A stretch of 64,000 bases of DNA from Mycobacterium parmense (GTDB lineage: Bacteria > Actinomycetota > Actinomycetes > Mycobacteriales > Mycobacteriaceae): assembly GCF_010730575.1 (NCBI RefSeq), contig NZ_AP022614.1, forward strand, positions 682,001-746,000, in the 5' to 3' direction. Every line of letters starts with the position of its first letter. The stretch's first letter is position 1. Shown one piece after another: positions 41,110 through 48,998 of the stretch. The position numbers were made by a program, and so were the translations under genes. A model generated the notes under the pieces. The model worked only from the letters and a program-made list of their open reading frames with translations, did not search any database and was not told where the DNA came from.

Positions 41110-41183
41110 GGGGCGGTAGCTCAGTTGGTTAGAGCCGCGGACTCATAATCCGTTGGTCGCGGGTTCGAGCCCCGCCCGCCCCA
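41110..41183 (+). tRNA. tRNA with anticodon CAT (tRNA-Met; tRNA-Ile2 not excluded)
   Basis: A full cloverleaf can be drawn. The acceptor GGGGCGG pairs with CCGCCCC, followed by discriminator A. The D arm is GCTCAGTTGGTTAGAGC, the anticodon stem is GCGGA/TCCGT with loop CTCATAA (anticodon CAT), and the T arm is GCGGG-TTCGAGC-CCCGC. CCA is not encoded. Its 3' part, from the anticodon stem on, is duplicated at 48840. Confidence 0.92.
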
Positions 41184-41193
41184 CTTCAGGCGT
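41139..41193 (+). repeat. Direct repeat, left copy (tRNA 3' end; attL-like)
   Basis: These 55 bases cover the tRNA from the anticodon stem to the 3' end plus ten bases, and are identical to 48840-48894. The layout is that of a tRNA attachment site flanking an integrated island. Similarity continues past the perfect repeat into the IS481-like left end, but with changes. Confidence 0.85.
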
Positions 41194-41201
41194 GTATGAC
41201 G

Positions 41202-41288
41202 TCGGCTGATGCTTGACATTTCAGTTCCGGGTGATGCCTGACAGTGTTTCGGCTGATCCTTTACAGCGGTTTCGGTTGATCCTTGACA
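41202..41288 (+). repeat. Four tandem 17-bp iterons upstream of the IS481-family transposase
   Basis: Near-identical units of the form TCGGYTGATSCTTGACA start at about 41202, 41226, 41249 and 41272, a regular spacing of 23-24 bases (two helical turns). Units like these at an insertion-sequence end suggest transposase binding sites. The scar at 48901-48940 retains only two such units. Confidence 0.75.
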
Positions 41289-41296
41289 CTCCCTGG

Positions 41297-42583
41297 ATGA
41301 GGGAGTTGAGCGTGGCTGAGCAGCGGTATCAGGCTGTGTTGGCGGTGATTGGTGATGGCCTGGCGATTTCCCAGGTTGCTGGGAAGGTCGGGGTTTCGCG
41401 TCAAACGTTGCATGTGTGGTTGGCGCGCTATGAGGCTGAGGGCCTACAAGGGCTGGTGGATCGGTCGCATCGGCCGGCCCGGTGTCCGCATCAGATGGGC
41501 GCGGAGGTCGAGGCGGTCCTGCTGGAGTTGCGTCGTACTCGCCCGTATTGGGGACCGCGTCGGCTGGTGTTCGAGTTAACCAAGCGCGGCGTTGCGCCGC
41601 TGCCGTCGCCCTCGGCGGTGTACCGGGCATTGCTGCGCGCCGGGATGATCGATCCCGCGCAGCGCGACCGGCGCGCGCGCAAGTGGAAACGCTGGGAACG
41701 TGGCGCGCCGATGGAGTTGTGGCAGATGGATGTGGTGGGTGGTTTCCCGCTGGCCGATGGCAGCTGCGCCAAGGTGTTAACGGGTATCGATGACCATTCC
41801 CGGTTGTGTGTGTCAGCGAAGGTGATGGCTCGTGAACGCACTCGTGCGGTCTGCGATGGGCTGCGGCAGGCCTTGGTGGCCTACGGCGCTCCTGAGCAGA
41901 TCTTGACCGATAACGGCAAGGTCTTCACCGGCCGGTTTTGTCATCCTCCGGTGGAGGTGCTCTTTGATGCGATCTGCCGCGAGCACGGCATCGAGCATCT
42001 GTTGACCCAGCCGCGAAGCCCCACCACGACCGGCAAGATCGAGCGGTTCCACCGCAGTCTGCGCGCGGAATTCCTCAGCGAGCAGCGGCCTTTCACCAAC
42101 CTCAAGACTGCCCAGCAGGCCCTCGATGAATGGATCGCTTACTACAACACCGCCCGGCCGCACCAATCGCTGGACATGGTGACCCCTGCCGAACGATTCG
42201 CTGCCGGGGCTGCGCTCAGACCGGCAGCGGCGCCGGCGACACCGCGCGACGATCGCAGCGGCGATGACTGGGTCAGCCGCCGCGTGACCACCAACGGGGT
42301 AATCAGCGTGGCCTGGCAGCAGGTCTGCCTGGGAGCTCACTACGCCGGCGCACGGTGCGACGTCCACGTCGACGGGGACCTGCTGCGGTTCTTCATCGGC
42401 GATGACTTGGTCAAAACCGCCGCCCGGACCAGCCGCGGCGAGGTACGAAACAAACGGGCCTTCCGCACCCGCGAACACTTCGCGGCGATTGCTGCGGTGG
42501 CAGCCGACGCAAAGGTGCCGCTCACGACCGCCCCGACAGCGCTGCGGCGCGACTACCTCATGGCGCACCCGCGGCGCCGATGA
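41297..42583 (+). CDS. IS481-family transposase
   Basis: This 428-residue DDE transposase has an N-terminal HTH (GLAISQVAGKVGVSRQTLHVWLARYE). The rve catalytic core has the three acidic residues in WQMDVVG, ILTDNGKVF and TTGKIERFHRSLRAEF, and a C-terminal extension follows. The open frame reaches 41213, but the ATG at 41297 (MRELSVAEQRYQAV) sits after the iterons. The left end lies directly at the tRNA 3' end; I could not find a matching right inverted repeat downstream. It looks intact. Confidence 0.9.
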   Translation: MRELSVAEQRYQAVLAVIGDGLAISQVAGKVGVSRQTLHVWLARYEAEGLQGLVDRSHRPARCPHQMGAEVEAVLLELRRTRPYWGPRRLVFELTKRGVAPLPSPSAVYRALLRAGMIDPAQRDRRARKWKRWERGAPMELWQMDVVGGFPLADGSCAKVLTGIDDHSRLCVSAKVMARERTRAVCDGLRQALVAYGAPEQILTDNGKVFTGRFCHPPVEVLFDAICREHGIEHLLTQPRSPTTTGKIERFHRSLRAEFLSEQRPFTNLKTAQQALDEWIAYYNTARPHQSLDMVTPAERFAAGAALRPAAAPATPRDDRSGDDWVSRRVTTNGVISVAWQQVCLGAHYAGARCDVHVDGDLLRFFIGDDLVKTAARTSRGEVRNKRAFRTREHFAAIAAVAADAKVPLTTAPTALRRDYLMAHPRRR

Positions 42584-43099
42584 GCCGGACGCGCGATGCT
42601 CCCGAGCATGACGCTGACGGTGCCGCGTCCGACCGGCGTCAAGGCCGCAGACACACCGCCGGGCGCGACGGCGCGGGCACAGCAGCAAGCACCGCCTTGG
42701 CCGAGCTTGACGCCCGCCGAGCATGCGAAGCGCCTAGTGCTCGATTGGTCCTAGCTGCTGCGGCACGCGACGTTCTACATGGCCGTGGTCTGGCCCGCTG
42801 TGCGGCGCGCTAACCGCTTCGCGAAGGCCGCGAAGGACCGCGCCGCGATGCAGCCACCCCTCCTGAAGTCCACGCGCTCCAGCACACCTACGCGAGCCCG
42901 TGCAACGCGGCAGGCCGAACGATGTTCGAGGTCGCGAGGTTCATACGGGGCATGCGTCGCCGCACACGACGGAAACGGCCTACGCACCCGCTGAACGCCG
43001 ACGACCTCGCAGACGCGATGGCCGCGCTCGATGCGATGGCCGGCCCCAAAGCCTGCCGCTGCGAACGTTGTTCACCTTCGGCGCACGGCTGCTCCGTAG
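42584..43099 (+). pseudogene. Degraded small gene(s) of unknown family
   Basis: From the ATG at 42608 (MTLTVPRPTGVKAAD) a frame with coding character stops at a TAG (42752). It continues in the same frame with LLRHATFYMAVVWPAVRRA, and then appears to shift to a frame containing MFEVARFIRGMRRRTRRKRP and NADDLADAMAALDAMAG up to about 43100. This reads as one small gene of about 150 codons with a nonsense and a frameshift lesion, or as two tiny genes. I recognise no domain. Confidence 0.35.
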
Positions 43100-44275
43100 C
43101 TAGAGCAGCTCTTCACGCTCCAACACCGCGCGCAAATCTTCGAAAATCGCCGAGATTCGGCCCCTTGGGTAGCGAAGTTGGCTCAGTCCGGTGATGTTCG
43201 AGAATTCCTCACAACCCTCTTCGAGCAGGACGATTGCGCGTTCGAATCCCAATCTTCCCTGGAACAGCCCAACCTCGTGAATCACGTTGTCGCGCGCTAC
43301 TTTCGTACCGTCAGCCATCTCATCTTCGGCAGTCATCACGAGGCAGGCGAACGCGGCGTTATTGAGCATGTCTGACAGCCTTGCGGCGGTGGTCGTCCCG
43401 GCGACAGGCACTCGATTGAATTCGTCGATGTGTAGCCCAAGGCGGTCTTGGAGGAAGTCCTTTAGTTCGCGCCACTGTTGGGATCTGCCATGTCCGATGA
43501 AAACACGGCTGCCGAGTTGGACTTTTGCGGCGGTGGGCGCATGGGTTGCGGCTCGACGGAGATGGTTAGCGGCATTTCGCGCACAATCTGCTAGTTCGAG
43601 CGCGCAAAGGTACGGCGCGTCAAAGGCTTCCAGTTGCCCGAGGATCTGTTGGTGTGGCGCAATAGCACCGCCTTCGTTTAGGGCCCTCGTGTCGTTCGTC
43701 AAGTATTGACGGTTCGGCACTAGGGCACGCGCAAACGTCGCTGCGCTGGGTGGGCTGGCCTTCTCGACTCTGTTCTTTACGCTAGCTATGTAGTTATCGT
43801 CGTGAGTCGCGAGATAGCTAGACAGTATCGATGTGATCGTTCCTTTGTGGCGTGTGACTGAGCGCCGCGCCTCGGTCTCTTTGGTCGTCATGTCATCGAA
43901 ATCGATCTTGACTCCGCACGCCCGCAACTCGTCTCGAACATCGTCCACACCGCGCACTTGCCATCGCGTAGGAGCTACGCCACCACGCCGCAGTCCAGAC
44001 GTGATGCTGAATGCCTCGTGTGCGGGCGGTGGCTCGAACTCGCCGTAATAGACACGCGCCTGATATCCGAGGTTGGACCCTGACCATGACTTTTCGACCT
44101 GATCGATCACTCGAAGTGCGGCGTTATAGGGTTCCCTGAACTCAGGGCTGTCGCCCTGGGCTCCAAGTGTCGAAAGCTCTTCCGCGAGCGCATCGAGTTC
44201 CGAGATGTACGCGTCTGTACCGGCCACCGGCGCCCTGGACCTCCTCTTCGAAGCCGCCGTGAGGGCTTGTTCCAT
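43100..44275 (-). CDS. Protein with C-terminal TIR-like nucleotide-binding domain
   Basis: This 391-residue protein has an N-terminal part of unknown fold (about 1-250). Its C-terminal domain (about 255-380) fits the CAP12-type predicted nucleotide-binding TIR-like family: RVFIGHGRSQQWRELKDFLQDRLGL, then SDMLNNAAFACLVMTAEDEM, then RDNVIHEVGLFQGRLGFERAIVLLEE. The domain occurs as an NAD-degrading effector in cyclic-nucleotide defence systems. The ATG at 44275 is the likely start; the frame stays open to 44488 with non-protein-like sequence. It is the last of four same-strand island genes. Confidence 0.75.
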   Translation of the reverse strand: MEQALTAASKRRSRAPVAGTDAYISELDALAEELSTLGAQGDSPEFREPYNAALRVIDQVEKSWSGSNLGYQARVYYGEFEPPPAHEAFSITSGLRRGGVAPTRWQVRGVDDVRDELRACGVKIDFDDMTTKETEARRSVTRHKGTITSILSSYLATHDDNYIASVKNRVEKASPPSAATFARALVPNRQYLTNDTRALNEGGAIAPHQQILGQLEAFDAPYLCALELADCARNAANHLRRAATHAPTAAKVQLGSRVFIGHGRSQQWRELKDFLQDRLGLHIDEFNRVPVAGTTTAARLSDMLNNAAFACLVMTAEDEMADGTKVARDNVIHEVGLFQGRLGFERAIVLLEEGCEEFSNITGLSQLRYPRGRISAIFEDLRAVLEREELL

Positions 44276-44618
44276 CGCCCACAACGTTACAAGGCTCAGG
44301 CGGCAGTACCGCGCAGGCAGTACTGCGCCCGAAAGCGGGAGCAGCACGGACGTACACTGCCCTGGCACCGTCCGGTGTGAGGATAAACCGCATCTGAAGT
44401 GCAAAATAGTGCAGTGCATGCCTCTAAAGCGAGGAGGACCGGTTTTATCGCGGACCTGTCGCGCGCGTGTATCGCTACACTGTCGCAACTAAGTGCAAAT
44501 CAGGGGGAGCGACCGGGGGGGAACGCCAGATGGGGCTTAGCGAGTGAGGCGGCAATCGAGATTTATTGCGAGACAACATAATTCGGTCTATCCGATCGGG
44601 CATGAAGTACTCTGTACC
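44276..44618 (-). other. Intergenic region within the island
   Basis: I see no supported gene in these 343 bases. Short plus-strand frames exist but look random. The part nearest the DUF6602-like gene (44560-44640) is AT-rich. A promoter for the TIR-like gene may lie here, since the gap is large for co-transcription. Confidence 0.4.
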
Positions 44619-45551
44619 CTACATAAACCAGCGGCTACTTCCCGTCGGAAAGATCCGTTCGTGCAGGTAGCTGGAGATAACCCCGTCTAACCGGCGAGGT
44701 AAGTGCCCGGATCCTAAGTGAGCGCCTGTTCTCATGGCGCTCAAGCCGTCGGCGATCTGTTTCAGCTGTGGATCTCGCACGGCCAGCTTTGCCCAGAGTT
44801 GGATCACAAGCGTTGCGATCGGGTGCGGGTTCTGGAGCGGAGCGGCGCCCGTGGTATCGGGGGTTTGGTGAGCTGAATGCCAGAAGTCGTAATAACTATC
44901 GCCCTCCGACGGCGCGGAGGGGCCGGGGCGAATTGGATTTTGAGCGATGTTTACCGTTCGATACCAGCAATCGAGATCAGCGACACAGACGAGGTCGAGC
45001 TGACCGCGAGGTGGTTCATCCTTCTGTGTTTCTGCGAGAAGAGCATCAGTGACCGCTGCGCGTGGTTCGTCACCCGGCAACTTGTGGGTGTGCGCCAAGA
45101 CACCGTAGATCAACGGGGATATTAGTTCTCCGATCTCTGTCCCCACCTTTCTTTCAAAGCCCTCACGTACTACTCGGGCCTCTGTTATCGCGTCCCGCAG
45201 TTTGCCCCTACTTAGTTCCGATTTCACGCTGAACGCTGCAACCACACCAGAGAGAAGGACTTCCGACCGTTCCCGAAGTTCGCGCGGATAGGACGGATGA
45301 AAGATGACTAGATCGGTCTCGCAAGAGTAGCTCTTGCGATTCACCGCGCGTTCCAGCAGTAGGTACTTGCGGGTGCCGACCTCGTACTGTGGCGGCAGCC
45401 AGCCCTGAAGTAGGCGACGGAATAGCGCCTCGTAATGGTGACCGCGTTGCTGCGCCCTTGCACGCCCTACCAGGTTGCGGCGAGTAAGTTCGTACTCGGC
45501 TGCAACGGCGTCTGCCACTGCGCCGAGCCATCTGACGTGTGCCTGTGTCAT
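44619..45551 (-). CDS. DUF6602-like putative nuclease
   Basis: The 310-residue protein resembles DUF6602 proteins: GHHYEALFRRLLQGWLPPQYEVGTRKYL, then CETDLVIFHPSYPREL, then LLSGVVAAFSVKSELSRGKL. Glu41, Asp80 and Lys110 are spaced like the E-D-xxK core of PD-(D/E)XK nucleases. The usual (E/Q)xK acidic or amide residue is Ser108 here, so activity is uncertain. The ATG at 45551 fits the family start. It sits between two island genes on the same strand. Confidence 0.65.
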   Translation of the reverse strand: MTQAHVRWLGAVADAVAAEYELTRRNLVGRARAQQRGHHYEALFRRLLQGWLPPQYEVGTRKYLLLERAVNRKSYSCETDLVIFHPSYPRELRERSEVLLSGVVAAFSVKSELSRGKLRDAITEARVVREGFERKVGTEIGELISPLIYGVLAHTHKLPGDEPRAAVTDALLAETQKDEPPRGQLDLVCVADLDCWYRTVNIAQNPIRPGPSAPSEGDSYYDFWHSAHQTPDTTGAAPLQNPHPIATLVIQLWAKLAVRDPQLKQIADGLSAMRTGAHLGSGHLPRRLDGVISSYLHERIFPTGSSRWFM

Positions 45552-45669
45552 GCCAATGGTTTATACGCTCCGCAAGCCGTTTGAGCTGTTCAAGTGAACT
45601 TGGGAGAAGGGATGCTGATCATCGCTCCACGAACCAGACGTTTCAAACTGACCCACTACCCCTCAGCTT

Positions 45670-46563
45670 CTACTCTGTGCGGTCGATCGGACGAACGGTG
45701 AAAAGTTCGCCGCTCAACTCTGGCCACTGTGTCGTCGAGTCTTGACGGATTGTGACTTCGCCTAGCCTGCAACATTCGTCAGAAGGGCTGATCTGAATGC
45801 CGCCAGGCGTCGTGTGGATTGCTCGGGAATCGAAGAGGGGCCCGGCGGGGTGATCAAGGGCGTGGCGGAGCTCCTCCTCAGCGACCCCCGGGAACTTCGG
45901 TGCGAGCGCTGTGAACAGCTGGTCCGAATACCGGTCGTTATGAAACGCTGAGATTGATCCATCTACTAATTTTTCGCTGTAAGTCACGACGTTGCGTGGG
46001 CCCCTAGGGTTGGCGTGCACTATAAGGCGAATTCCGAAGTTCGTATTGGGATCGAGACGGCGGCCTGCCGAGATGGTGATGAGCTTTTTCGCGTTACCAT
46101 CGCGTAACGCGAACCAGATGGGCCGCGCATTTTGCTCGTCTGGCAGTCGTCGCGGAACGCGGTTCCAGCACGCCAGCGTCTCGTCTGGCTCCCACTTGGT
46201 CCAACGCCTGCTGACTTCGTAGCGGTAGTAATGGAGGTGTCCGCCCAGCAAGTCAATTGAGATCGGCGGCTCTGGGGGAGCGGCGGTGCCGTGCTCGAAG
46301 CGGAGCGTGTTAATCCCGGCCGGCATCGACGTGAGCCAATTGGTGAACAATGAGTTTTCGGTATCCGCGATCCGCGGATCAGTCGTGTCGTAGTACCCAG
46401 CGAGCGGCGCGCCCACAGGAATCACAAACTGTGACAGCAGCTCCTTCAGCTGCGCCTTGAGCACTTTCTGCCAGTCATGCCGCTCCTCGCCGTCGAACTG
46501 AATGTGGTACCCAGACCAAACTTCAACTGAAGTACCGGCGGTACGAACGAAGAACGGTTTCAT
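45670..46563 (-). CDS. Hypothetical protein of the island
   Basis: This 297-residue soluble protein has no signal peptide or membrane helix, and I recognise no family. It begins MKPFFVRTAGTSVEVWSGYH and is rich in Trp and Tyr; the central part (DLLGGHLHYYRYEVSRRWTKWEP) looks like a beta-rich domain. The ATG at 46563 follows GGAGGG at good spacing, so it is a real gene. It lies between the interrupted transmembrane gene and the DUF6602-like gene on one strand. Confidence 0.7.
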   Translation of the reverse strand: MKPFFVRTAGTSVEVWSGYHIQFDGEERHDWQKVLKAQLKELLSQFVIPVGAPLAGYYDTTDPRIADTENSLFTNWLTSMPAGINTLRFEHGTAAPPEPPISIDLLGGHLHYYRYEVSRRWTKWEPDETLACWNRVPRRLPDEQNARPIWFALRDGNAKKLITISAGRRLDPNTNFGIRLIVHANPRGPRNVVTYSEKLVDGSISAFHNDRYSDQLFTALAPKFPGVAEEELRHALDHPAGPLFDSRAIHTTPGGIQISPSDECCRLGEVTIRQDSTTQWPELSGELFTVRPIDRTE

Positions 46564-46873
46564 GTGATCCCTCCGATGGCGTTGCGCCGCAAGTTCTGCG
46601 TTACCCGCACCTAACGAAAAGCGAAACTGCGAGGAGTCGCGCCGCGGGGCGGTCAGAGCTCTTCGAACAACTTCACCTGCTGACGAGTGAGCAACGCGCT
46701 CTTATCGATCTTGCGAAGGCCCGCGAGTACGCAGTTGATCTGGCGCTGGAGCCTCTGCAAGCGATCGCTGACCTCTGCGCGCATATCTGCTTCTACATCG
46801 ACACGGAAGACCGAATCGTCTGTCGGTGGACGCCTGACCTCCTCCCATTTCTCAAGGGCGGCATCAATTGAGT

Positions 46874-46882
46874 CGATGAGCG
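46874..46882. repeat. Target-site duplication, left copy
   Basis: CGATGAGCG is repeated exactly at 48309-48317 and bounds the IS256-family element; 8-9 bp duplications are usual for this family. Confidence 0.85.
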
Positions 46883-48308
46883 AGTTGCGTCCAGCAGAGT
46901 GGTGTACGAGTCGGGCCTGATCAGGATGTCCGGCGTGTCGTAGCCGAATGAATGAAGGTCATCGCGTGATTCTTCGAGAGACCGACCAAAGTCACTCGAG
47001 CAAAGGAATCGACGCGATGACCACTGCCCACGATATCGACTGGCCCGCCGTGCTGGCTGATCGACTCACCACCACCAGCCCGGATGTGTTGCGTGAGCTG
47101 CTGGCCACGTTCATCCACACCCTGATGGGCGCCGAAGCAGACGCGCTGTGCGGCGCCGGCTACGGGCAGCGCAGTTCCGAGCGCACCAATCAGCGCAACG
47201 GCTATCGTCACCGCCAGTTCGACACGCGTGCAGGCAGTTTGGACCTGGCGATCCCCAAGCTGCGCCATGGCTCGTACTTCCCGGATTGGCTGCTGGAACG
47301 CCGTAAACGCGCCGAACGGGCCCTGACCACCGTGGTGGCCACCTGCTACCTGCTGGGGGTGTCGACGCGGCGGATGGACAAGCTCGTCGAGACTCTGGGA
47401 ATCACGTCGTTGTCGAAGTCGCAGGTGTCGGTGATGGCCACGGAGCTCGACGCGGCCGTCGAAGCCTTCCGGACCCGCCCGTTGGATGCCGGTCCGTACA
47501 CCTTCATGGCCGCCGATGCCCTGGTGCTCAAGGTTCGCGAAGGTGGGCGGGTGGTCAACGTGCACGCCTTGATCGCCGTCGGGGTGAACGCCGACGGTTA
47601 CCGCGAGATCCTCGGGGTCGATGTCACCACAGCCGAGGACGGTGCTGGCTGGCTGACGTTCCTGCGCTCGCTGACAGCCCGCGGCCTCTCAGGCGTGAAG
47701 CTGGTGACTTCCGACGCGCATGCCGGACTGGTCGCCGCGATCGGCGCGACCCTGCCGGGCGCATCGTGGCAGCGCTGCCGCACCCACTACACGACCAATC
47801 TCATGGCCGTCACACCCAAGGCGTCCTGGCCGTGGGTCAAGACCCTGCTGCACTCGGTGTTCGATCAGCCCGACGCGGACTCCGTTGCCGCCCAATATGA
47901 TCGGGTGATTGACGCGTTAGATGGAAAGCTGCCTAAGACAGCTGAACACCTTGAGGCCGCGCGAGCGACCTGCTTGCGTTCACGGCGTTCCCCAAACAGA
48001 TCTGGCGGCAGATCTGGTCCAACAACCCCCAGGAGCGGCTCAACAAGGAGATCCGCCGACGCACCGACGTCGTCGGGATCTTCCCCGACCGCAACGCCCT
48101 CATTCGTCTCGTCGGCGCCGTGCTGGCCGAACAACACGACGAATGGGCCGAGTCCCGGCGCTACCTCGGCCTCGACGTGCTGAGCAAATCACGCGCGGTC
48201 AACGACACCCCAACAGAACAGGAGGACACCCCGGCGGCGCTGACCGCCTGACACATCACGACGAAGAATCACACAACGACGTCGTACACCACGTCCCTGG
48301 ACTTGACC
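46883..48308 (+). mobile_element. IS256-family insertion sequence (1426 bp)
   Basis: The ends form imperfect inverted repeats: GTCCAGCAGAGTGGTGTACG at the left against GTCCAGGGACGTGGTGTACG on the complement of the right end. They are bounded by a 9-bp direct repeat. The element carries one transposase gene, which is frameshifted. The size is normal for mycobacterial IS256-family elements. It disrupts the transmembrane coiled-coil gene. Confidence 0.85.
47017..48251 (+). pseudogene. IS256-family transposase, frameshifted
   Basis: From the ATG at 47017 (MTTAHDIDWPAVLADRL) the frame shows mutator-family features: CGAGYGQRSSERTNQRNGYR, the DDE Asp in FMAADALVLKV, and VTSDAHAGLVAAI. After HLEAARA (about 47965) the family sequence continues in another frame as DLLAFTAFPKQIWRQIWSNN and RLNKEIRRRTDVVGIFP, ending at a TGA at 48249. 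A single-base deletion near 47966 explains this. The third catalytic residue (Glu in the NKEIRR region) is lost from the original frame, so the copy should be inactive unless this is a sequencing error. An ATG at 46948 is an alternative start. Confidence 0.85.
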
Positions 48309-48317
48309 CGATGAGCG
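48309..48317. repeat. Target-site duplication, right copy
   Basis: Exact copy of 46874-46882 immediately after the right inverted repeat of the IS256-family element. Confidence 0.85.
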
Positions 48318-48839
48318 ATTCCAACTGCCGTGGGCTCGGCGCTAAGAAGGCGTCCCCCTCAAGCCGAAGGTAGCTGCGAAGGTCACGAAGGCAGTCCACT
48401 ATCGAATCGCTCGGCATGCGCGAGGTCAGTTGGTTCAGCGCCTTCTCCAAACGTGCTTTTGCGGGCCGAAGCCTGTCCTTCAATTCGGATCGAAGTTGCT
48501 GCTGGCTCTTACGAACGTCGGCGTACTTGGTGAACAAATAGTTGCGAAGCCCCAGGACCAGGGCGCCCAGGCTGATGGCCGCGGATATGCAGGCGACGAC
48601 GACAGTCCACATGGCTGAAGTCTAGGCAGCGGGTGTCACGGCCTCGCCTATCGCGTCCGAACATAGCTAACACCCGCTCGTCCCGGCTCACCCCGGCGTC
48701 ACCCCGGCGTCCGGGGGCGATTCGTAGCCGTACTGAAGCCGTACCGGAAGCGCACCGGTGACGGCCAGATTCGTCGCCTCACAGGGCGTTTACTGTTCCT
48801 TTGCCAATCATTTCGCCTGGTCGTCGAGCCGCTGGCTAG

Positions 48840-48894
48840 GGACTCATAATCCGTTGGTCGCGGGTTCGAGCCCCGCCCGCCCCACTTCAGGCGT
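48840..48894 (+). repeat. Direct repeat, right copy (tRNA 3' fragment; attR-like)
   Basis: This is a perfect 55-base copy of the tRNA 3' part and following ten bases (41139-41193), without the 5' half of a tRNA. It marks the far boundary of the island. Minus-strand open frames across both copies (with RGSNPRPTDYES) are artefacts of tRNA sequence. Confidence 0.85.
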
Positions 48895-48998
48895 ATGACC
48901 TCGGTTGATGCGTGACAGTTGTTTCGGCTGATCCGTGACACTCCCTGGATGAGGGAGTTGAGCGTGGCTGAGCGGCGGTATCAGGCTGTGATGGCGGT
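48895..48998 (+). mobile_element. Scar of an IS481-like left end
   Basis: After the tRNA fragment the sequence follows the left end of the IS481-like element at 41194, with changes: two iterons (48901-48917 and 48924-48940) instead of four, then the transposase start region (GGATGAGGGAGTTGAGCGTG and about 40 bases more). Similarity stops at about 48998, where an IS5-like fragment begins. It is non-functional. Confidence 0.8.

What the first reader, a model, noticed from the sequence alone, without database searches (positions are those of the whole stretch)
43100..48612. Candidate four-gene defence-like system in a tRNA island
Four genes lie on one strand: a transmembrane coiled-coil protein (now split), an unknown 297-residue protein, a DUF6602-like protein with an E-D-K nuclease-like core, and a protein ending in a TIR-like nucleotide-binding domain. 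The bounds are a tRNA-derived direct repeat. TIR-like effectors of this type degrade NAD in known antiphage systems (CBASS/Pycsar), but no cyclase is present, so the trigger would be different. The combination is not one I recognise. Defence function is an inference from domain type and mobile context.
Basis: partly seen in the sequence, partly recalled or inferred. Interest (0 to 1): 0.85.

Follow-up and report, generated by a model that had tools for sequence, protein, structure and literature searches.

The report
Island of stand-alone defence-like genes
A small stretch of foreign DNA beside a tRNA gene in a mycobacterium carries a NAD-cleaving-type immune gene, a DNA-cutting-type gene and two unknown genes, but these look like separate single-gene weapons that happen to sit together, not one four-part machine.

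Summary
In detail: four minus-strand genes in a 7.7-kb island bounded by tRNA-Met and an exact 55-bp tRNA-derived repeat, one of them split by an IS256-type element. The "four-gene system" is not supported: in 301 genomes of the family, carriers of TIR, DUF6602 and ORF297 relatives coincide only in the window's own genome, and no foreign locus I held carries relatives of two of the genes. Best reading: a cargo island of independent single-gene modules. The TIR gene has a CAP12/Pycsar-type TIR (catalytic Glu kept, SfSTING D110 replaced by Asn) joined to an unnamed N-terminal domain. That pairing recurs on plasmids and in viral contigs, and once the domain sits on another effector-type domain (Hypoth_Ymh), as a swappable sensor would. 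The DUF6602 protein is NucC-like, from a clade whose ExK glutamate seems to have moved (E78/S108 in 7 of 7; Q78/E108 in 12 of 12 others). ORF297 stays unknown. Side result: the IS481 element at the island's left edge belongs to a clade inserted at fixed distance behind tRNA genes (24 of 26 loci; 14-18-bp duplications in 13 of 24).

The parts
41110..41184 (+). tRNA-Met (cat), integration target
   Evidence: ARAGORN
41139..41193 (+). left copy of the 55-bp direct repeat (tRNA 3' part plus 9 bp), attL-like
41193..42477 (+). IS481-type element behind the tRNA; transposase frame 41213-42583; right end lost (homology to other copies stops about 1275-1283 bp after the tip)
   Evidence: Pfam
43100..44275 (-). 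Unnamed N-terminal domain plus C-terminal CAP12/Pycsar-type TIR (391 aa; range includes the stop); R328, N330, E334 conserved, N360 in place of SfSTING D110
44619..45551 (-). DUF6602 NucC-like PD-(D/E)xK-type protein (310 aa), E78/D80/S108/K110
45670..46563 (-). ORF297, unknown family
46653..46883 (-). 3' piece of the split one-TM coiled-coil gene
46884..48309 (+). IS256/IS1164-type element interrupting the TM gene; 9-bp target duplication 46875-46883 / 48310-48318
48319..48612 (-). 5' piece of the split TM coiled-coil gene
48840..48894 (+). right copy of the 55-bp repeat, attR-like
48894..48998 (+). remnant of a second IS481-type copy behind the tRNA 3' part

Best explanation
A degraded mobile island integrated at tRNA-Met, with no integrase left among its large frames, carrying independent single-gene defence-like modules, not a four-gene system. 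The TIR gene most likely works alone as a one-protein abortive-infection device: its N-terminal domain (about residues 20-250) senses an unknown phage trigger, the TIR domains assemble, and Glu334 catalyses NAD+ loss. DUF6602 most likely acts alone as a NucC-like DNase whose second carboxylate is Glu78 in place of the ExK glutamate. ORF297 is an unknown passenger, and the TM gene is already broken by an IS. Shown: gene content, bounds, domain assignments, residue conservation, lack of shared neighbourhoods in the sample, one effector exchange on the N-terminal domain. Inferred: sensing, NADase, nuclease and defence activity.
For: In 301 family genomes, relatives of ORF297, DUF6602 and TIR occur in 4, 6 and 8 genomes besides the window's own, with no genome shared. 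Of 132 loci held, 68 match at least one query at E<=1e-3; the only ones matching two are the window's own locus and one genome (G112) in which both TM pieces match one unbroken frame. TIR relatives covering both halves (37-45% identity for the seven aligned) are on rhizobial and Klebsiella plasmids and in five IMG/VR contigs. R328, N330 and E334 are invariant in 8 of 8 and their spacing fits SfSTING R78/N80/E84. L048 carries the N-terminal domain on a Hypoth_Ymh domain. DUF6602 relatives sit without the other families, also on a 5.4-kb plasmid.
Against: All four genes share one strand within 5.5 kb, so joint transcription is possible. The sample is thin: most family TIR hits are the TIR domain alone, one ORF297 carrier (G119) is doubtful, many loci are only 3-4 kb, and L074 holds about 0.4 kb on one side. 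In four rhizobial plasmids a second TIR gene follows the first, so the protein may act as a pair there. SfSTING D110, needed for its NADase, is Asn360 in all 8. The effector exchange rests on one protein. No activity was measured and no structure could be predicted.
Confidence: 0.75

Rival explanations
1. A true multi-gene system that is very rare: ORF297 or the DUF6602 protein senses phage, the TIR protein is the effector, and the TM protein anchors it.
For: Same strand, adjacent, one island, shared low GC.
Against: No partner next to any relative in the foreign loci held; carriers do not overlap in 301 genomes; gaps of 118 and 343 bp; the TIR protein carries the same extra domain elsewhere.
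Confidence: 0.08
2. The TIR protein is a CBASS/Pycsar-like effector that answers a cyclic nucleotide made elsewhere in the genome.
For: The TIR domain is of the CAP12/Pycsar family. The rest of the genome was not searched for cyclases.
Against: The N-terminal domain matches no named sensor model in Pfam, NCBIfam or PHROGs; the NCBIfam Cap12 models score 34-35 bits against a cut-off of 450; no cyclase is among the annotated neighbours of five plasmid relatives, whose gene tables are incomplete.
Confidence: 0.1
3. The DUF6602 protein is a dead nuclease that has kept only DNA binding, because its ExK glutamate is Ser.
For: S108 in 7 of 7 members of the clade.
Against: E41, D80 and K110 stay invariant in 11 of 11, and Glu78 appears exactly where Ser108 does, as expected if the carboxylate moved. 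But this is one branch of the tree, so a single event could also be loss.
Confidence: 0.25

Closest known systems
CAP12 (TIR-STING) and PycTIR effectors, PF10137
   Same: Same TIR family; R78/N80/E84 equivalents kept.
   Different: No STING or Pycsar sensor model matched, no cyclase among the island proteins scanned, D110 replaced by Asn360.
PADLOC candidate PDC-S35 and PHROG 16442 (both without a stated function)
   Same: TIR region matches PDC-S35 at E=1.1e-13 and phrog_16442 at 1.1e-33.
   Different: PDC-S35 covers about residues 239-370 of the 391-residue window protein (310-441 in the 462-residue frame). In L073 one PDC-S35 model reaches residues 106-341, and in L074 phrog_16442 spans 136-364, so part of the N-terminal region may be distantly related to them.
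NucC / DUF6602
   Same: DUF6602 over cut-off; NucC matches weak for the window protein, stronger for a relative; E41, D80, K110 kept.
   Different: Position 108 is Ser, position 78 Glu instead of Gln; no CBASS or CRISPR genes among the annotated neighbours.
tRNA-integrated genomic islands / integrative mobilisable elements
   Same: tRNA 3'-part direct repeat; G688 has an integrase, a relaxase and an AbiE pair at its tRNA-Met.
   Different: No integrase among the large frames of the window island.

Membership tests
CAP12/Pycsar TIR domain (PF10137) | profile match over the curated cut-off | tested here: met
   83.2 bits, cut-off 24.7
CAP12/Pycsar TIR domain (PF10137) | catalytic Glu (SfSTING E84) with R78 and N80 | tested here: met
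   R328, N330, E334 invariant in 8 of 8; residues named in PMC9402430 (passages); equivalence by spacing in the match to a chain named CD-NTase-associated protein 12
CAP12/Pycsar TIR domain (PF10137) | D110 completing the NADase site | tested here: not met
   N360 in 8 of 8
CBASS / Pycsar system | nucleotide cyclase beside the effector | tested here: not met
   six large island proteins scanned, none a cyclase
CBASS Cap12 equivalog | NCBIfam cut-off 450 bits | tested here: not met
   34.8 and 34.1 bits
DUF6602 (PF20247) | profile match over cut-off | tested here: met
   56.3 bits, cut-off 27
NucC | D...ExK core | tested here: not met
   D80 and K110 present, position 108 is Ser; Glu78 in the alternative place
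NucC | cyclic trinucleotide-activated DNase activity | not testable with these tools
   needs biochemistry
tRNA-integrated island | tRNA gene plus direct repeat of its 3' part | tested here: met
   55 bp, exact
tRNA-integrated island | own integrase | tested here: not met
   only IS481 and IS256 transposases among the large frames scanned
four-gene conserved system | members neighbour each other in unrelated genomes | tested here: not met

The most novel reading that the evidence does not exclude
The TIR gene is the mycobacterial member of a phage- and plasmid-borne one-protein immune family built around an undescribed swappable sensor domain (TIR in nine intact relatives, Hypoth_Ymh in one). 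Its island neighbour belongs to a NucC-like nuclease clade with a relocated active-site glutamate. The tRNA site itself is shared by ordinary integrase islands and by a simple IS481 transposon dedicated to tRNA 3' ends (fixed spacing and orientation, 14-18-bp duplications that include the last tRNA bases).
Probability: 0.55. Interest if true: 0.65.

Novelty: new variant of a known kind. Interest (0 to 1): 0.45.

Why it matters
If the N-terminal domain is a sensor, a TIR NADase system with no separate cyclase or partner gene becomes testable from one gene, and the domain offers a route to further effectors. The Glu exchange between positions 78 and 108 in DUF6602 gives a simple mutational test of active-site migration. 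The tRNA-targeted IS481 clade would be a compact DDE transposon with att-like sites, apparently without the extra target-choosing proteins of Tn7-like elements.

Tried and rejected
Rejected: (1) four-gene system (see co-occurrence). (2) The island as cargo of the IS481 element: the 13 copies with a clear right end stop 1339-1368 bp after their tip, leaving room for a transposase only, and the repeated tRNA part (46 nt) is longer than the element's duplications. (3) A second TIR remnant downstream of the TIR gene: tblastn of four sequences of relatives against 42561-43105 gave only chance-level hits, best E 0.08. (4) N-terminal-domain search in 396 phylum genomes: 5 of 396 matched, the own one included; of the other four, L049 and L051 read like integrases and L050 like an unrelated enzyme, so they were dropped as chance, and L048 was kept. 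(5) ORF297 hit L013 (G119) is a 60-residue match in an implausible frame and L008 a short weak match; both doubtful. Led nowhere: solved-structure searches for ORF297; Pfam, PADLOC, PHROG and NCBIfam for ORF297; phages for ORF297; phages for the TIR protein, one record with a 23% TIR-end match; plasmids for the TM pieces; viral contigs for ORF297 and for two single N-terminal domains.

Full report
WHAT IS THERE. The window lies in a 5.95-Mb single-contig genome. Its genus includes G267, whose second contig has the length and match position of the Mycobacterium gordonae plasmid NZ_CP070974.1, so the host is a mycobacterium. The island is bounded by tRNA-Met and an exact 55-bp copy of its 3' part plus 9 bp. 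In 25 relatives searched, five (G683, G685, G688, G690, G692) also show partial matches to the 3' part of this tRNA. Only in G688 do the whole gene and the partial copy lie close together, about 15 kb apart; between them are a Phage_integrase protein, a TrwC relaxase and an AbiE pair. So this tRNA is used by integrase-bearing elements elsewhere. No integrase is among the large frames of the window island.

IS IT ONE SYSTEM? I searched 301 family genomes (by their handles the same sample each time) with each protein. ORF297 matched 5 of 301 genomes, DUF6602 7 of 301 and TIR 9 of 301, the own genome included; the other 18 carriers are 18 different genomes. Most of the TIR matches are the TIR domain alone, and one (G201) is an 83-residue remnant. 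The two TM pieces were searched apart in 161 genomes: both match one unbroken 220-residue frame in G112, and the 3' piece weakly matches G065 and G133. G112 has no match to the other three proteins. Three of the five loci fetched later are the same viral contigs as before; the other two, L135 and L136, match TIR only. Not every locus is long: about 30 of the matched loci were widened to about 10-17 kb or fetched at that length, but L074 and L075 are cut near contig ends and many loci are only 3-4 kb. So the claim is: no partner in what was viewed. A rare system cannot be excluded.

TIR GENE. Relatives covering both halves are on plasmids of Agrobacterium vaccinii, A. vitis, Ciceribacter selenitireducens, Rhizobium leguminosarum (broken there) and Klebsiella variicola, and in five IMG/VR contigs (L073, L074, L075, L135, L136). 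L073 carries a terminase and L075 an integrase. In the four rhizobial plasmids a second TIR gene follows, with an IS3 transposase gene annotated between the two in L033. In alignment A2 (8 sequences) R328, N330, E334 and N360 are invariant. The sequence match to a solved chain named CD-NTase-associated protein 12 has the same spacing as R78, N80, E84 and D110 of SfSTING (residue numbers from PMC9402430, passages only). Counted by hand, E334 falls on E84 and N360 on D110. D110A abolishes NADase in SfSTING by that paper, so Asn here is a real point against assuming the same chemistry. The N-terminal domain alone has no Pfam, NCBIfam or PHROG match beyond chance level. The whole protein matches phrog_16442 (unknown function) over residues 191-387. 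In G496 (L048) the domain is joined to PF09509 Hypoth_Ymh (E=1.9e-13) in place of TIR, and the L048 domain finds the Klebsiella TIR protein at E=2e-5. In alignment A7 eleven columns are invariant, among them the SGS..G motif. That is one exchange against nine intact TIR relatives. It suggests a sensor but does not show it. That Hypoth_Ymh is an abortive-infection-type domain is my recollection, not a call.

DUF6602 GENE. The family is near NucC by PADLOC and weakly by sequence. Across the distinct proteins gathered, 7 of 7 of the window's clade have Glu at 78 and Ser at 108, and 12 of 12 others have Gln at 78 and Glu at 108 (one further truncated protein has Gln78, and three frame fragments of L079 were dropped). 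They come from the six family genomes, six of the seven plasmid hits and the genomes (7 of 197 matched). The tree of 18 of these makes this one change on one branch with support 100/99, so it is one event, not repeated covariation. I read it as a moved catalytic carboxylate; that such moves are known in this superfamily is recalled (the paper I looked up was not held). A search for DUF6602 in the held papers found 0. Relatives on plasmids, including a 5.4-kb one, have none of the other three families beside them.

ORF297. It has a 53%-identical relative in Mycolicibacterium chubuense near a NERD-helicase gene, and distant ones in the genus, one near an AbiEi gene and an AbiEii-like gene below cut-off. 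No family, phage or solved-structure match stood out. I have no mechanism to offer beyond passenger; it is the least understood part.

THE ELEMENT BEHIND THE tRNA. In the own genome all four loci with at least 76% transposase identity lie directly behind a tRNA or its 3' part (tRNA-Met, its 3' repeat at the island's right end, tRNA-Arg TCT, tRNA-Arg CCT), while three more distant IS481 loci (31-38%) have no such tip or tRNA. Because the first search included the tRNA, I repeated it with transposase DNA only in 148 genus genomes: 41 matched, 58 places were listed, and 30 became loci (the other 28 places were not examined here). Of the 30, the window's own included, 26 keep the 5' end, and 24 of these 26 have a tRNA (Met, Arg, Ala or Thr) ending 114-119 bp before the same base, in the same orientation; L118 and L121 do not. 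The element reads TG...ACA, with several tandem repeats at the left and two inverted ones at the right. An exact 14-18-bp duplication directly after ...ACA is present in 13 of 24 loci tested, against 9-11 as the longest in 200 shuffles each (L098 and L121 not tested). The window's own copy is among the 11 without one, as it lacks its right end. Paper searches showed no title or abstract start on a tRNA-targeted IS481, but their listings were partial (8 of 10, 15 of 28, 12 of 504, 8 of 23 and 8 of 64 papers), and of those listed I read passages of PMC9569102 and PMC11406308 only. The latter says that IS481 elements share TGT/ACA ends with Tn7-like elements and that Tn7-like elements often use tRNA genes. 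So I cannot say that this is unpublished.

LITERATURE SEEN. PMC13142454: outline, abstract and passages; it places PF10137 in one clade, within which amoeba relatives of TIR-STING fall. PMC9402430: passages. PMC8682760: passages, nothing used. The others: listings only.

VERDICT. A real island with real defence-like domains, but an ordinary arrangement: separate cargo genes. What raises it above routine is the shared N-terminal domain, the nuclease clade and the tRNA-targeted IS481.

Noticed in passing
window 41193-42477 and 48894-48998; L095-L124: IS481-type element placed 8-13 bp behind tRNA genes in 24 of 26 loci with an intact left end, with 14-18-bp target duplications covering the last tRNA bases in 13 of 24.
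   Followed up: partly
L032, L033, L034, L035: The TIR gene is followed by a second TIR gene in four rhizobial plasmids; in L032 its start looks like a zinc ribbon (my reading). DUF4238 genes lie near in L032 and L035.
   Followed up: no
L048 991-2064: The TIR protein's N-terminal domain fused to Hypoth_Ymh instead of TIR.
   Followed up: partly
L068 (G688): Another element at a tRNA-Met with a 3'-part repeat, holding an integrase, a relaxase and an AbiE pair.
   Followed up: partly
L097, L103, L111: A second IS481 left end appears directly after the first copy, as if inserted in tandem (my reading).
   Followed up: no
L046 (G277), seen as L023 and L030: Two neighbouring genes in which a TIR-type C-terminus follows a long sugar-kinase-like part (my reading of the sequence).
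   Followed up: no
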